From Ehretia macrophylla (lineage: Eukaryota; Streptophyta; Magnoliopsida; Boraginales; Ehretiaceae), in assembly GCA_037974665.1 (NCBI GenBank), contig CM075767.1, forward strand, positions 18,120,840-18,184,839: a DNA stretch of 64,000 nucleotides, in the 5' to 3' direction. The notes below the pieces were generated by a model, which saw only the letters and a list, made by a program, of their open reading frames with translations, did no database searches and was not told where the DNA came from. Shown one piece after another: positions 5,508 through 62,000 of the stretch (position 1 is its first letter; the number at the start of each line of letters is the position of its first letter). The position numbers and the translations under genes are program-made.

Positions 5508-5533
5508 GAGGGCGGCCTACTTTGTCGTCCCTC
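5508..5533 (+). other. CTACTTT-loop hairpin, family A LTR
   Basis: Arms GAGGGCGGC and GTCGTCCCTC pair, with one bulge, around the seven-base loop CTACTTT. The same loop with different arms recurs in the family B and D LTRs and twice in the chromovirus LTR. Confidence 0.6.
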
Positions 5534-6292
5534 ATATGTGATAATTGATATACTTGGTTCTCGTGATCATGTTTTGGGTTGCACAACCTTTTCGGACATG
5601 GTAGCGTTGAGAAACACGAGCGGCGTCGGGCTTGCCGTGCTCCATCGACTACCATGGTGCCTATTCCTATGATGCCCAGACCTAGCATAAAGATTTTTAA
5701 TTAGAAATTGCATATTTATTTTATTAAATTGCATTTTAATTAGATTTTTAATCCGGAATTTTACTTATCATTATTATCTATAATTAATAAATTAAGTAAT
5801 GAAACTTCATGAAACAATTATTATTTTTATTTTATGAGAAACAAACAGTTAATATTTCATTATTATAATTATTTTAATTGTATTTAATCAACTTGTCAAG
5901 AATAATTATTTAGTTACTTTAGAATTTTATTTATTAAAAGTCACCTTGTGAATATTATCATTAATTTAAATTGCTAATTTAGTGTGAAATCCCGAGTGTG
6001 AGAATGATTATATTGTTATTAAATTATTCTTTGGATATATAAGAGTTATAAATAATAGATTTATCTAGAATAGTTAATAAATTATTAATTTCATTAACTG
6101 CGTTTAATTAATTTAAGGAATAATCCGCTCCGGAATAATTATTCTTAATAAATTGTATTATTATTTAAATTTATCTTAGGTATTTTTAATCGGTTGTCTT
6201 TAATTGAGTGCGAAGCCGGGTCGGGACTGAGTGAATTTCTGAGACACCCGATCTTTTAATTCTAATTAGTTGATTTTGAGGTCTTCAATAGG

Positions 6293-6623
6293 AAATAATA
6301 ATAATAATAATACTAATATTAATAATAATAATAGTAATAAAATAAAAATAATAATAATAATAATAATAATAATAAAAAAAATAATAAAAATAAATAGCAA
6401 AAATAACTCAGCCACAAAAAAAAAAAATTTTCTCACCCATTCTCAACTACACACACGCGCAGGTCCAAACAAAACCACCAAACCCACTTTGATTTTTCAT
6501 CTCTCTCACGCGACACACACACACAGCCCCCTCACCAACATATCAAAACCTCTCATCACCACCAGCATACCATCGGGCAGAGAGAGAGAGAGAGAGAGAT
6601 AGAGAGAGGGAGAGAGAGAGAGG
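6293..6623 (+). repeat. AAT and GA microsatellites in 5' LTR B
   Basis: An interrupted (AAT)n tract at 6293-6374 and an interrupted (GA)n tract at 6579-6623. The same pair occurs in the other LTR copy. Confidence 0.85.
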
Positions 6624-8320
6624 ATGCAGCTTTGGTGAAAAAGAAGAAGAGAAAAAAAAATTTATAGCTAGGGCTCAAGGCCTCTCTACGCGCGGCTGAG
6701 GTTAGAAATCAGATCTGGAGCAGCATAATCAAGCGAGGGAGATATATCTTATGCCTTTCAATTACTTGTTATATTTAATTGAGTCAGGTATGATATGTGT
6801 ATATGAAATATGTGAGGTATGATGCTTGAATGTTGATCTGTGGGTTGTAGGATGATAAGCAAGATCTCTTTTGCTTAATTTATTTGATTTAGCTTACGGG
6901 TTAGTATTAATCAACTGTTTATTTTATTGGGATTAGTTGAATCTTATGTGTTTGTTGAAGTGCCTGAGAAGGGTTGTATTCTATTTTACATGATTTCTGA
7001 AATGAAAATAAGATTTGCAAGATAGTAATTGCGTAAGTATTTAGTTCTTTGTGAGCATGTGCGTGTTTCTGTTGACTGTCAATGCCAGCAGCCGATTACC
7101 CAGCGCCGGCAAAGGCTGTTCAGCGAACTGCAGCCCGTCGGAGGTGGTTGCAGCTTCATGCCTTTTCTTTTGCTCATTCGAATGGTGGATGCAAGTTAAT
7201 TTTTGATAATATAGTGTGCTAACAACTTGAAATTAATGAGGTAATTAAGGGAGTAGAATCTAATAGTAAGTTAGTTAGACTAATATAATTAATCTAGTTA
7301 GAATCGCTCAAATGTTTGAATTATGTGTACGTTGTTCATGACTAGCTAAACAAGTTTTAAATTTTTAGTGGTTTGGATATTAGATTTATGATTTGGAAGC
7401 TAACTTAAGGCAAATAATGAATAGAATTTACTTGTATGACTTGTAAATTAGTTTAGCTATGTTTAAATGTCACACGATTAATAAGAGTATGTAAAGAACA
7501 AGTACTTACTATGGCTATGAGAACATGCAGTTAGTTAGTAAAAGAATAAAATTTTAGACAGTTTGGCCTTCTACATGTTGATAAAAGTTAACTCTTTTAA
7601 GTGATTAATTAACGTAGGCACCTTGACTAATAAGTAAAGGCTTGGACATAAGAGAAAAGTTGAACTTAACATGGTAGTAATTATGTTCGATAAGCAAATC
7701 ACTAAGAAGTAAGAATTTAATCAAAGTCAGTGACACTAGCTTAAGACCATCTTATTATGTTATCTAAATAAGAATAAACACATAGAAGCAACTAACATTA
7801 CCTCAAGTAAGAATTCTTTAGGTAGTTAGAAATTGACATTTTTACTAGTTGTTATTTATGTCTTCTTCTCAGATGTGTAGTTAATTGAATTATCAAAGTT
7901 AATTATGAGAAGTTATGCGGGGAAGTTTGAAACATTTAAAGTTAATTAACAATTGCTTTAGCTAGTATTTGCATTTGTGGTTTAACTTGCCTTGAGGAAT
8001 TATAAAGGATGCAAGAAGGGTTAGTTAGAACTGAAATTTGAAATAAAGCTAACGATCTCTTCATGTTGGCTATTCTAGTTGAGAGAAAACTAATTGGCAC
8101 TAAAAAGGGGCTTAGTGAACCTTAGTTTAAAATACATGGTTACTTTAATCCTACAATTAGTTAGTTGCCATTTAGCTCATAGTTGCCTTTTTACTGTTGA
8201 CTTGACTCATACACTTTACGTAGCTGTTGTTGCTCATTAATACTTAATTGTTTACATGAATAGTTGAGTTACATGTTTAGTTGAAATTCAATGATTAACT
8301 GATTCTATTGTTACATGTTT

Positions 8321-58920: not shown

Positions 58921-58969
58921 GAGTAACCAGAGTTGGACTTCAGTTGATGTCGAGTTCTATTGGAAGATG

Positions 58970-59005
58970 AATTGCGAGGCCGCAATTGTTTTAAGGGGGG
59001 AAAGA
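58970..59005 (+). promoter_or_regulatory. Pre-PPT hairpin and polypurine tract, family D
   Basis: Perfect stem AATTGCG/CGCAATT with loop AGGC (58970-58987), then AAGGGGGGAAAGA directly before the 3' LTR. Confidence 0.75.
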
Positions 59006-62000
59006 TGTGATACCCCAAAATGGGCACATATTTAATAGTATTTAATTGCATTTATTACGTGTTATCCTAAATGGTAGCTGTGAGAACCCGAGCATTCATT
59101 ACATGGTCATTCATTTATTTTAATCATTATTTGAAAAATAATATGTGCATTTACATGACTTATTTAGTGTTTTAAAATTTAAAATGGTATTTAAAGTTAA
59201 TTCAAATTGCATCTTGTTGACTTTCACATTCTTTAACTAAACTAGTTGACTTTTCATCTACATTGACCAACTAGGACAAGGTGAGAATTTTTAAAATGTT
59301 TAATGAAAGGCAAACTTGGGATTAGAAATAAAAATGCAAGGTTAAATTAGTCAAATTTTGGGTCAACTTTGGAATTAAATCTGAACCCATTGGGGAAGAG
59401 TTAGGTAGCAAATTATATATGGTTGGAAAGCTCTATGAGTCTAGTTTCTAAGGCTTCAAACCGTTTGTGAATTGGACTTTTCTAGAAGAAGTTATGACCG
59501 TTTTCGTAAGGTTGCGCAGGACTGTTTTGGTTTACGCGGGTTTGACCGAAGACTTGACCTTTGACTTTCATTAAAGCTTATAAAACACCAAAAAAATCCC
59601 AAAATTGCTCATCTTCTTCTTGCTTCAGCCGTGACCAGTCCAAACCCTAGGAATAGTAGATTTTCACTATTTTGCTTATATCTTGAGCTAGAAGCGGAAC
59701 CAAGACGCAAACCAAGCATTTTTGGACCCATGTCGACGTCTAGCATCTTTCTACCGATCGTTTTTGTCTTTATTTTGCGAAACAAAGGTGAGGGAATTTT
59801 TTTTCAAATCTTCCAAAGTTTATTTTCACGTCATAAAATGATAGGATTGCATTTGTATCTTGCTAAATAGGTGTTAGAGAAGACTTTACCGATTAATTTC
59901 TTATATAGAACATATTTTGTTGAAATTGGCTATTTTGAGTTGGTCAATGATTTATATGTCTAAGTTGTGTTTAATCTTGATGCTTAGCTTTTATATAATG
60001 CTCATATATGTTATTGAACCTATCTAGCATAATAAAATAACTTGAGATTGCAAAACGCAGTAAGAAAAATGGAGAATGTAGCTTGCTGAATTTTTCTATT
60101 TTTGGGCGTTTAGGGGCTGTTTCGTTGGGTAGTTTTTGCGCACCCATTAGATATCTTATTTTATGCTATTATATGGTTTATAAGCCTTCTATTAGATAGG
60201 GAAAAATGTTGGTAGTTGGAGGGTCATGGTGGTTTGGGTGGAATAAGCTAAATTGTTGGTGTTTTTGAGTTGAAATGGTTGGTTTAGGTGCAAATGTGTG
60301 CTCCTGTGTGGTGTGTAATCTCTACGCTTGTAATGGTGACCTTTGGGCTACCTCGGAGTTATAATAGTAGCATGCTAAGGTTGTGTAGTGATAGTTGGAA
60401 GTTAGAATAACTTTGATTGCATAAGTTGCTATAATTGAGCTAGTATTGCCTACTTAGCTATTGTTCTCGTTGTTATATTTGGCTGTGAATCACGTCCATG
60501 AGGTTTCTTGTGATAAATATGCGTTCTATTACATGCTAGGTGGATCCATTGAGCCAAACTTGCGTCATGGAAACTAGTAGAGGTGAGGGAGAAACATTTA
60601 TATACATTTCTTTGAATGTTAAGGTTTGTGTTGAATTTTGTAATTGTTGTATATTGTGATATAAATGCTTATGAATGCTTCCAAAACCTTCTAAAATGAT
60701 TAGTGAACATTCTTTTGCAAGCTATTGGCATAGTTTATGGCTAGATTTTGAAATGACAAGTTAAAGAAGACAATGAATAGTGTAAATTTTAAGGTTTTGA
60801 TAAAATGTGCTTTCGGGTTTGATTCAATACTATAGTTAGGCACTAAAGATATTAATGAAGATAGTCTAATGACCCCATGTAGTTTAATTGCTCGGAACTT
60901 AGCCAAAACGCGACATAGCCGACTTTTTAAAAGGGGTTTCGGGTTAATGCTAATCCGGGTAGAATTGAGCTTCACATTTGGTATTGTTAGGCTACCTAGG
61001 TGCTATAGAAGCTTTATTAACCCTTGTTTGAAGTCCTGTTAAGGTATGTGTAGTTCAAAGGTATAAGAGGAAAATTGGAGCTTTTGGGGTAACTGGGGGT
61101 AATTGAACGTGTTTGAGGGGTGTAAGGTTACCTTAAGGGCTAATTAGAAGATTGGTGTAGCTTTCCCTTGAATTTGAATCACTAACATGAGTTTGGAAGG
61201 AAAATAGCTTGAATAACAAAGGAGTTTAAGTGCAAATTCAGTTGTTTCACGCTTCTAAGACCATGGCATGACTCCTTGTGTGTTTAAATGTGGTTTCTAG
61301 TTGTTTTGGAGCTTTTGGTATAGTTCTATGTGTATCTTGAATATACCCCTTTATAAAACTGCTTAATTGCTTGTGTAAATTGCTTATATTCTAACTGTTT
61401 CGAGGTCAACCTACTTTGTTGATCCTCCTATGTGTTGTAGCTTATATTGTTGATATTGTCTTGCCATTGATAAGTGCATTGCATAGTGGTTGCGCAACCA
61501 TAGTGTCAGGGGAGGATGTGTTGAATATCGGCTGGGCGGCAGAGGGCTTGTCAGTGGATATTCAAACTCTGTGCCCTAGTTCCTTATTCGCCTGGTCCGG
61601 AGATTGCCAGGGGGTGTTGGGTCATAGGATTATCGGGGTACATCCGGAGTACACCCACTGGAGTGATTGCGATTATGCCGGCTCAGTGATCATGGTTCGT
61701 GGATCGAGAATGAAGATCAAGTGAAGATTTGGAGTGTTGGGGTTAAGTGTAATGTATCCTTTTTAATGTGTGGTTACTTAATCAATTGTCATTCTTGAAT
61801 GGTTTTAATTGTTATTAATGTTTAAATGTACTACTTGTTGCATTGCACGCCCCGAGAGACTTTATCCCTCACTAGGCAACAGTGGTTGCTCATACCTCCC
61901 TAACATATTTCAGGAGGTGCATTTGGAGGAGGAGTTGCCTTAGTTGCAGTGTCTAATTGCGTGAGGTGGATTTATGGCTCTTGCTATTATGCGGAGATCT

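What the first reader, a model, noticed from the sequence alone, without database searches (positions are those of the whole stretch)
5508..61427. A hairpin with a constant CTACTTT loop and covarying stems in four LTR families
Seven-base loop CTACTTT is closed by different but still pairing arms in family A (GAGGGCGGC/GTCGTCCCTC), B (GAGGACAAC/GCTGTCCTC), D (GAGGTCAAC/GTTGATCCTC, both LTRs) and twice in the chromovirus LTR (33498-33527 and 33608-33638, the latter with GATGGC/GCCATC). The loop stays fixed while stem bases change together, as expected of a selected RNA or DNA structure, not just shared descent. A packaging, dimerisation or reverse-transcription role, or recognition of non-autonomous partners by chromovirus proteins, is inference.
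Basis: partly seen in the sequence, partly recalled or inferred. Interest (0 to 1): 0.78.

Follow-up and report, generated by a model that had tools for sequence, protein, structure and literature searches.

The report
Retrotransposon hairpin copying spliceosomal U12 RNA
Thousands of jumping genes in this (probably plant) genome carry an RNA hairpin with the same loop as the host's U12 small nuclear RNA, usually followed by a U12-type splice signal, which suggests that they recruit the cell's rare 'minor' splicing machine.

Summary
They open a ~400-nt conserved block in long-LTR retrotransposons, autonomous chromoviruses and non-autonomous elements alike. One stem-loop pattern has 4,300 genome matches against 0 for the reversed pattern. 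A phylogeny-aware null supports the inner stem as a whole (245/260 cells paired vs 200±16; 0/1000). The packaging or dimerisation reading is not what the sequence points to. The loop plus its closing C-G pair is identical to stem-loop III of the host's own U12 snRNA, found in the same genome. In humans U11/U12-65K binds that loop and needs its U-A-C letters, its closing pair and a stem, features kept here. About 250-375 nt downstream lies RTATCCTTT, the U12-type 5' splice-site consensus (recalled): 43 of 51 copies, 0 of 102 equal windows upstream. It is the most conserved 9-mer that was not used to pick loci. Best reading: the LTR RNA recruits the U11/U12 di-snRNP. Binding, transcription start and splicing are untested; no spliced genomic copy was found and a U12 branch point is unclear. 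No such system appeared in the papers searched.

The parts
5508..5533 (+). HP1 hairpin, family A fragment (loop 5517-5523); A is cut by the insertion of element B at about 5669
8321..8345 (+). HP1 hairpin, family B LTR (loop 8330-8336)
56600..56625 (+). HP1 hairpin, family D first LTR (loop 56609-56615)
61402..61427 (+). HP1 hairpin, family D second LTR (loop 61411-61417)
33605..33641 (-). HP1 hairpin a, chromovirus 3' LTR, 15-bp stem (loop 33620-33626)
33498..33527 (-). HP1 hairpin b, chromovirus 3' LTR (loop 33508-33514)
40840..40965 (-). decayed HP1 pair in the chromovirus 5' LTR (loops CTAATTT at 40965-40959 and CTATTTT at 40846-40840)
8418..8429 (+). palindrome GGTTGCGCAACC between HP1 and HP2 (also at 25148, 43154, 56686, 61488)
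8459..8477 (+). HP2 apical core, family B (also starting at 25189, 43195, 56732, 61534 on + and 33439 on -)
8595..8615 (+). HP3 hairpin GGGATAC-ATCTGGA-GTATCCC, family B (inner part of HP3 of D at 56837-56849 and 61639-61651)
8690..8698 (+). U12-type 5' splice-site motif GTATCCTTT, family B
25430..25438 (+). U12-type 5' splice-site motif GTATCCTTT, family C first LTR
25570..25595 (+). candidate branch region and 3' splice site of C (TTTTAACATGTTTCAG then G; TTCAGG starts at 25590)
61754..61762 (+). U12-type 5' splice-site motif GTATCCTTT, family D second LTR
61889..61914 (+). candidate branch region and 3' splice site, family D second LTR (TTCAGG starts at 61909)
56951..56959 (+). decayed donor in family D first LTR (ATATCATTT)
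33254..33262 (-). U12-type 5' splice-site motif GTATCCTTT, chromovirus 3' LTR; a branch-like GTCCTTGAT lies 243 nt downstream, at 33019
40595..40603 (-). U12-type 5' splice-site motif GTATCCTTT, chromovirus 5' LTR
9486..9497 (+). tRNA-iMet type primer-binding site of B (also 26075 for C with one change, 57746 for D, 32587 on - beside the chromovirus LTR)
   Evidence: motif recalled

Best explanation
HP1 is an RNA mimic of stem-loop III of U12 snRNA. In the transcribed LTR leader it would be bound by the host protein U11/U12-65K. With the U12-type 5' splice site 250-375 nt downstream, which can pair with the 5' end of U11 snRNA, it would hold the U11/U12 di-snRNP of the minor spliceosome on the retrotransposon RNA. 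SHOWN by sequence: loop and closing-pair identity with the host U12 gene; conservation of both signals, in that order, in autonomous and non-autonomous families; inner stem kept while its letters change. INFERRED: that the block is transcribed as 5' leader; that 65K and U11 bind it; what follows. The most likely consequence is removal of a roughly 150-400 nt U12-type leader intron from part of the RNA. Alternatives are suppression of early poly(A) in the 5' LTR and nuclear holding of full-length RNA, as U1 does at a retroviral major splice donor (recalled) or U11 on the 65K mRNA (PMC5473595, abstract). Non-autonomous elements would need the same signals because they use the same host step.
For: (1) The host U12 gene (L117; Rfam U12, 90.9 bits) reads CUGC-CUACUUU-GCAG at SLIII; HP1 has the same 7-nt loop and C-G closing pair. 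(2) Passages of PMC4980772: 65K binding to human U12 SLIII needs U115, A116 and C117 of loop 114-120, the closing pair C113-G121, and a stem. In HP1 the closing pair is C-G in 46 of 47, and the inner stem varies while pairing. (3) RTATCCTTT at +200..600 of HP1 in 43 of 51 modules, in 0 of 102 equal windows upstream; 48 of 60 in the wider set; 29 of 35 in the HP2-anchored sample, picked without reference to HP1 or the donor. Many of these copies are close relatives. In the 64-kb window all five RTATCCTTT lie in these LTRs at this place. (4) Across 12 LTR families 11 have the exact donor, and TATCCTTTT (0.93) is the third most conserved 9-mer of the block, after CTACTTTGT (0.99) and the HP2 core (0.95), both of which were used to pick loci; the donor was not (second, 0.97, when the block was cut just after the donor). 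(5) The host U11 5' end AAAAAGGGUCGGUU pairs over all 14 letters, with one bulge in the target, with the type-I donor AACCGUAUCCUUUUU: -14.9 kcal/mol, chromovirus donor -6.5, reversed control -4.1. In 6 of 12 families the donor is the best U11 site of 2.78 kb. (6) Similarity between 13 families rises at HP1, and the block is GC-rich, followed by AT-rich sequence. (7) TTCAG|G with TAAC about 10 nt before it lies about 155-180 nt after many donors; the chromovirus has GTCCTTGAT, 8 of 9 to the plant U12 branch consensus, 243 nt after its donor and shortly before a TAG. (8) The window chromovirus has Gag to integrase domains, and Gag-like frames (by eye, not family-tested) follow the PBS of L057, L058, L083 and L074, so autonomous elements carry the module.
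Against: No RNA data: the TSS and splicing are unknown, and a TATA box is not consistently placed. The plant U12 branch consensus TTCCTTRAY (PMC5932401 passage) is mostly matched at only 7 of 9 letters and at scattered places, without a control; a 9/9 in L013 lies where that LTR seems interrupted. No spliced copy was found: junction patterns gave 1 hit vs 0 control (that hit is not an LTR) and 6 vs 18 control. Family C lacks HP1 but keeps the donor. CTCTTTT is a common second loop (18 of 75 places listed), and it and CTATTTT change letters that human 65K needs. In humans one stem change that kept the U12 SLIII structure still lost binding (PMC4980772), so a free stem is not guaranteed to bind. 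Intact loop and intact donor are not significantly associated across 66 modules (49/10 vs 4/3, Fisher p 0.13). The donor is not the best U11 site in 6 of 12 families, including the chromovirus. Outer stem pairs do not exceed the phylogenetic null for pairing (p 0.31-0.35). The one host U6atac gene read lacks the loop that human U6atac shares.
Confidence: 0.6

Rival explanations
1. HP1 is a packaging, dimerisation or reverse-transcription signal read by the chromovirus Gag/NC, shared so that non-autonomous elements are packaged in trans; the likeness to U12 is chance.
For: The hairpin is shared by autonomous and non-autonomous elements; the block also has palindromes able to kiss (GGTTGCGCAACC; HP3 loop ATCCGGA) and HP2, much like a retroviral leader (recalled).
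Against: Does not explain why loop plus closing pair equal U12 SLIII, or why RTATCCTTT is among the three most conserved 9-mers. HP2 and HP3 could serve packaging without HP1.
Confidence: 0.2
2. The block is a DNA-level promoter or silencing element; HP1 is an imperfect palindrome bound by a dimeric factor.
For: It lies inside the LTR, and no transcription data exist; conserved 3' CpG islands are reported in Del LTRs of some grasses (PMC4029996 passages). In pair 7 of the ungapped stem A-C outnumbers G-T, 12 to 5.
Against: G-T oppositions outnumber A-C 66 to 11 in pairs 1-6, which suits RNA read in this sense, though the strand is G+T-rich and a few chance hairpins are in that set; the consensus fold has a bulge on one arm only; the loop is as conserved as the arms.
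Confidence: 0.1
3. Shared descent of LTR families by recombination alone; the hairpin is a frozen relic.
For: The modules align as one block; the all-pairs test finds no significant pair; outer pairs do not exceed the phylogenetic null for pairing.
Against: 245 of 260 inner-stem cells pair against 200±16 under independent evolution on the tree (0/1000), and 23 both-side changes against 10.6 (p 0.035); fully different paired stems.
Confidence: 0.08

Closest known systems
U12 snRNA 3' stem-loop III, the U11/U12-65K binding site (PMC4980772, PMC11039992, passages read)
   Same: 7-nt loop CUACUUU, C-G closing pair, a stem
   Different: lies in an LTR of a retrotransposon, with a different and longer stem, one to three copies per LTR
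USSE of U11-48K and U11/U12-65K genes (PMC3584512 passages; PMC5473595 abstract)
   Same: U12-type 5' splice-site sequence in an RNA that recruits U11/U12 di-snRNP without being a plain intron end
   Different: the USSE is a tandem pair of donors in host genes; here one donor plus a 65K-type hairpin in an LTR
Retroviral leader with TAR, DIS, psi and major splice donor (recalled)
   Same: structured leader with hairpins, palindromes and a donor, shared by helper and defective elements
   Different: the donor is of the minor-spliceosome type; no binding of element proteins shown
Conserved LTR motifs of Sireviruses (recalled; seen here only in the reference list of PMC4029996)
   Same: conserved non-coding motifs across LTR families
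   Different: a different lineage; no U12-like hairpin recalled

Membership tests
U12 SLIII-type 65K-binding hairpin | 7-nt loop with U-A-C at positions 2-4 (CUACUUU) | tested here: met
   31 of 38 HP2-anchored loci exact; the other 7 are TTACTTT (3), CTATTTT, CTAACTT, CTGCTTT, CTCTTTT; host U12 identical
U12 SLIII-type 65K-binding hairpin | C-G loop-closing pair | tested here: met
   46 of 47
U12 SLIII-type 65K-binding hairpin | a stem below the loop | tested here: met
   91.8% of cells paired, both-side changes in 6 of 7 pairs; phylogeny-aware null for the inner pairs. In humans the stem sequence may matter too
U12 SLIII-type 65K-binding hairpin | binding by U11/U12-65K | not testable with these tools
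   needs EMSA or CLIP
U12-type intron | 5' splice site RTATCCTTT (consensus recalled) | tested here: met
   43 of 51 modules, 0 of 102 control windows; 11 of 12 families
U12-type intron | branch point TTCCTTRAY (PMC5932401) | tested here: not met
   best matches mostly 7 of 9; 8 of 9 in the chromovirus 3' LTR
U12-type intron | branch A close to the 3' AG, no polypyrimidine tract between | tested here: inconclusive
   TAAC then TTCAG|G ends in several families, absent or unclear in others
U12-type intron | removed from RNA | tested here: inconclusive
   no spliced genomic copies found; no RNA data
USSE | tandem U12-type 5' splice sites | tested here: not met
   window LTRs have one RTATCCTTT each at most
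Rfam families | match above gathering score | tested here: not met
   0 matches in the window; at E<=10 in 8250-8760 two bacterial families on the other strand, below gathering score, taken as chance
Plant chromovirus (Tekay/Del-like) | Gag, protease, RT, RNase H, integrase C-terminal SH3 and iMet PBS | tested here: met
   Pfam hits, PBS
Plant chromovirus (Tekay/Del-like) | chromodomain | tested here: inconclusive
   no Pfam Chromo hit in the four frames scanned

The most novel reading that the evidence does not exclude
A whole guild of LTR retrotransposons, autonomous and non-autonomous, has built a minor-spliceosome docking module into its LTR RNA: one to three copies of a U12 stem-loop III mimic that captures 65K, plus a U11-complementary U12-type donor. 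The elements thereby use or divert the scarce U11/U12 di-snRNP to control splicing, poly(A) choice or nuclear fate of their genomes, and tens of thousands of copies could burden the host's U12 splicing.
Probability: 0.45. Interest if true: 0.93.

Novelty: categorically new. Interest (0 to 1): 0.85.

Why it matters
The paper searches made (listings only, PMC open-licence library) showed no mobile element that uses a snRNA-like hairpin or a U12-type splice site in its LTR. If right, it links transposons to the minor spliceosome, explains a conserved LTR RNA structure, gives a sequence test for partner elements, and offers thousands of natural variants for mapping 65K-RNA recognition. It also raises the question whether such repeats titrate U11/U12 in repeat-rich genomes.

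Tried and rejected
tRNA anticodon-loop mimic: the base after the would-be anticodon is U, so dropped by inspection. Kissing of the loop with AAAGTAG nearby: such sites in the window lie elsewhere. Rfam: nothing relevant. Sense versus antisense folding energy as a strand test: uninformative, because control segments are even more biased. Whole-module R-scape-like test: no significant pair. TATA box placement: inconsistent. U12 branch point: not convincing, apart from an 8/9 in the chromovirus. Spliced copies: none. U6atac mimicry: the host U6atac gene read lacks the loop. Loop-donor association: not significant. Other collections: one IMG/VR hit for HP1 without donor, taken as chance; 79 stretches for the HP2 core, not looked at and presumed chance. 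Papers: listings showed no title or abstract on an LTR hairpin of this kind; PMC3601003, PMC4029996, PMC3605345 and PMC10228655 were seen as passages only; PMC6679479 gave no passage.

Limits of the counts: rows of A1/A2 come partly from loci chosen by HP1 patterns that force some pairs, which lifts the pairing figures; the HP2-anchored sample is free of that but has few families and near-duplicate copies, and its script always reports a best match. L101 was dropped there because it has no upstream sequence. L013 was dropped from the 13 families, where each block was also cut 25 nt after its donor; one search repeats the count without that cut, with and without L013 (11 of 12 and 11 of 13 families with the exact donor; rank 3 in both). 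Search listings give the first 100 places only.

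
Full report
What is in the window. The window is G000:C4:18120840-18184839 of a 1.58-Gb, 20-contig assembly; that it is a plant is inferred. Self-comparison and element ends give: element B (LTR 5670 to about 9480, PBS 9486, second LTR from 11157) inserted into a fragment of family A; element C (LTR 21711-26072; second LTR 27386-30008 continued at 42341-44064) interrupted by a chromovirus cluster on the minus strand (LTRs about 32590-34991 and 40122-42340; Gag, protease, RT/RNase H and integrase end by Pfam); and element D (LTRs 54201-57743 and 59006-62547). 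B, C and D have long LTRs and interiors of about 1.3-1.7 kb without an ORF of 150 aa, so they look non-autonomous. B, D and the chromovirus have a tRNA-iMet type PBS, C one with a single change (motif recalled).

The observation. The six hairpins are real. The heptamer alone is at chance level in the window, but stem plus loop is hugely enriched in the genome: 4,300 matches against 0 for the reversed pattern. With the loop left open, 50 of 75 listed places read CTACTTT, 18 CTCTTTT and 7 something else. With the third base a pyrimidine there are 415 matches against 109 in the control, and the listed rows include new, fully paired stems; with the second pair forbidden to be A-T there are 193 against 1.

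A larger module. Downstream of HP1 lie a palindrome (GGTTGCGCAACC or shorter; not in the window chromovirus), a long hairpin HP2 with core GGGCNGCNNNGGGCTTGCC (13,496 + 13,492 genome copies, control 0), a third hairpin HP3 (GGGRTAC-ATCCGGA-GTAYCCC in several families) and RTATCCTTT. In 38 HP2-anchored loci, picked without reference to HP1, 31 had the exact loop 101-123 nt upstream, 30 of these with at least 4 of 5 pairs; the other 7 had TTACTTT (3), CTATTTT, CTAACTT, CTGCTTT or CTCTTTT. HP1 folds with z below -2 in 43 of 52 modules, HP2 in 20 of 52, the spacer in 1 of 52. Similarity between 13 families rises from 0.13-0.20 to 0.60 at HP1 (0.36 in the 60 nt before it) and stays at 0.29 or more for about 400 nt, with GC rising to about 0.5; part of the peak comes from picking loci by HP1 or HP2. 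Gag-like frames (by eye) follow the PBS in L057, L058, L083 and L074.

Covariation. On 47 distinct HP2-linked hairpins 91.8% of cells pair against 84.6% in shuffles, 23 cells have both sides changed against 6.0, and slid controls pair 38-67%, though the +1 slide also has 23 both-side-changed cells. RNAalifold on 52 modules predicts the hairpin with a 1-nt bulge; 9 of 14 predicted pairs (HP1 and HP2 together) have both-side changes. With a tree from the columns outside HP1 and independently evolving 3' columns, the five inner pairs keep 245 of 260 cells against 200±16 (0 of 1000) and 23 both-side changes against 10.6 (p 0.035); the three outer pairs do not exceed the null for pairing (p 0.31-0.35), one does for both-side changes (p 0.003). 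A stricter all-pairs test on 34 modules gave no significant pair. Some rows were found with patterns that force part of the stem, so the figures lean upward; the HP2-anchored sample does not have this bias.

The key identity. The host U12 snRNA gene (C18:23685916-23686079, 90.9 bits) has stem-loop III CUGC-CUACUUU-GCAG: the same loop and closing pair as HP1, in a different stem. In humans this hairpin is the binding site of U11/U12-65K, which needs loop letters U115, A116 and C117, the closing C-G pair and a stem (PMC4980772, passages); the paralogue RBM41 prefers similar loops (PMC11039992, passages). HP1 keeps these features and lets the stem letters drift. A caution from the same paper: one structure-keeping stem change of U12 SLIII lost binding.

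The second signal. RTATCCTTT is the U12-type 5' splice-site consensus (recalled; the passages read do not print it). It occurs 200-600 nt after HP1 in 43 of 51 modules and in 0 of 102 windows of the same size upstream, in 29 of 35 HP2-anchored loci, and all five copies in the window are at this place. It is exact in 11 of 12 families, and TATCCTTTT (0.93) is the third most conserved 9-mer of the block after the loop (0.99) and the HP2 core (0.95), which were used for picking. The two host U11 genes begin AAAAAGGGUCGGUU, which pairs with the type-I donor and its exon end over 14 letters with one bulge, -14.9 kcal/mol, against -6.5 for the chromovirus donor and -4.1 for a reversed control. In 6 of 12 families the donor is the best U11 site of 2.78 kb, in the other 6 it is not.

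Is it an intron? After the donor the LTR is AT-rich, and many families have TAAC, about ten bases, then TTCAG|G about 155-180 nt (some 340-380) downstream, for example C at 25590 and D at 61909. The plant branch consensus TTCCTTRAY (PMC5932401, passage) is mostly only approached (7 of 9); the chromovirus 3' LTR has GTCCTTGAT (8 of 9) 243 nt after its donor, at 33019, shortly before a TAG. Junction patterns for two family types found no spliced genomic copy. So the donor is well supported as a sequence, the intron is not shown, and recruitment without splicing is possible, as in the USSE of host genes (PMC3584512, passages) and in U11-dependent nuclear retention of the 65K mRNA (PMC5473595, abstract).

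What speaks against. Family C keeps the donor but has no HP1. Loop variants exist, and CTCTTTT, the second commonest, changes letters that human 65K needs; the two CTCTTTT loci read have no donor in the stretch held, but a CTTTTTT relative does. Intact loop and intact donor are not significantly associated. No RNA evidence exists here; if transcription starts below the block, HP1 would be only in the 3' end of the RNA.

Verdict. The best explanation is molecular mimicry of U12 stem-loop III which, with a U12-type donor, would recruit the minor-spliceosome di-snRNP to LTR RNA. I put this at 0.6, a spliced leader intron at about 0.35, and retention or poly(A) control at about 0.25. No paper in the search listings describes such a thing, within an open-licence library only.

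Noticed in passing
8595-8615, 56837-56849, 61639-61651: HP3: a second hairpin with a nearly fixed 7-nt loop (ATCCGGA) and varying stem; the loop holds the self-complementary TCCGGA, like a dimerisation loop.
   Followed up: partly
8459, 25189, 43195, 56732, 61534 (+), 33439 (-): HP2 core GGGCNGCNNNGGGCTTGCC, about 27,000 copies in the genome with no reversed-control match; its flanking stems differ between families. No Rfam family matched.
   Followed up: partly
8579-8587: AAAGGGTCG in the conserved block of B equals part of the 5' end of the host U11 snRNA and might pair with the downstream donor; in other families mainly GGGTCG is kept.
   Followed up: partly
8418, 25148, 43154, 56686, 61488: Perfect palindrome GGTTGCGCAACC between HP1 and HP2 in B and D and before HP2 in C, but not in the chromovirus.
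   Followed up: no
L093, L104: LTR modules with a CTCTTTT loop instead of CTACTTT; L104 has a compensated different stem. Neither has a donor within the stretch held.
   Followed up: partly
L015, L017, L023 and 33498-33641: Several LTRs carry two or three HP1 hairpins about 100-390 nt apart on the same strand, with equal loops and in part different stems.
   Followed up: partly
LTR ends, e.g. [quoted passage not shown]
   Followed up: no
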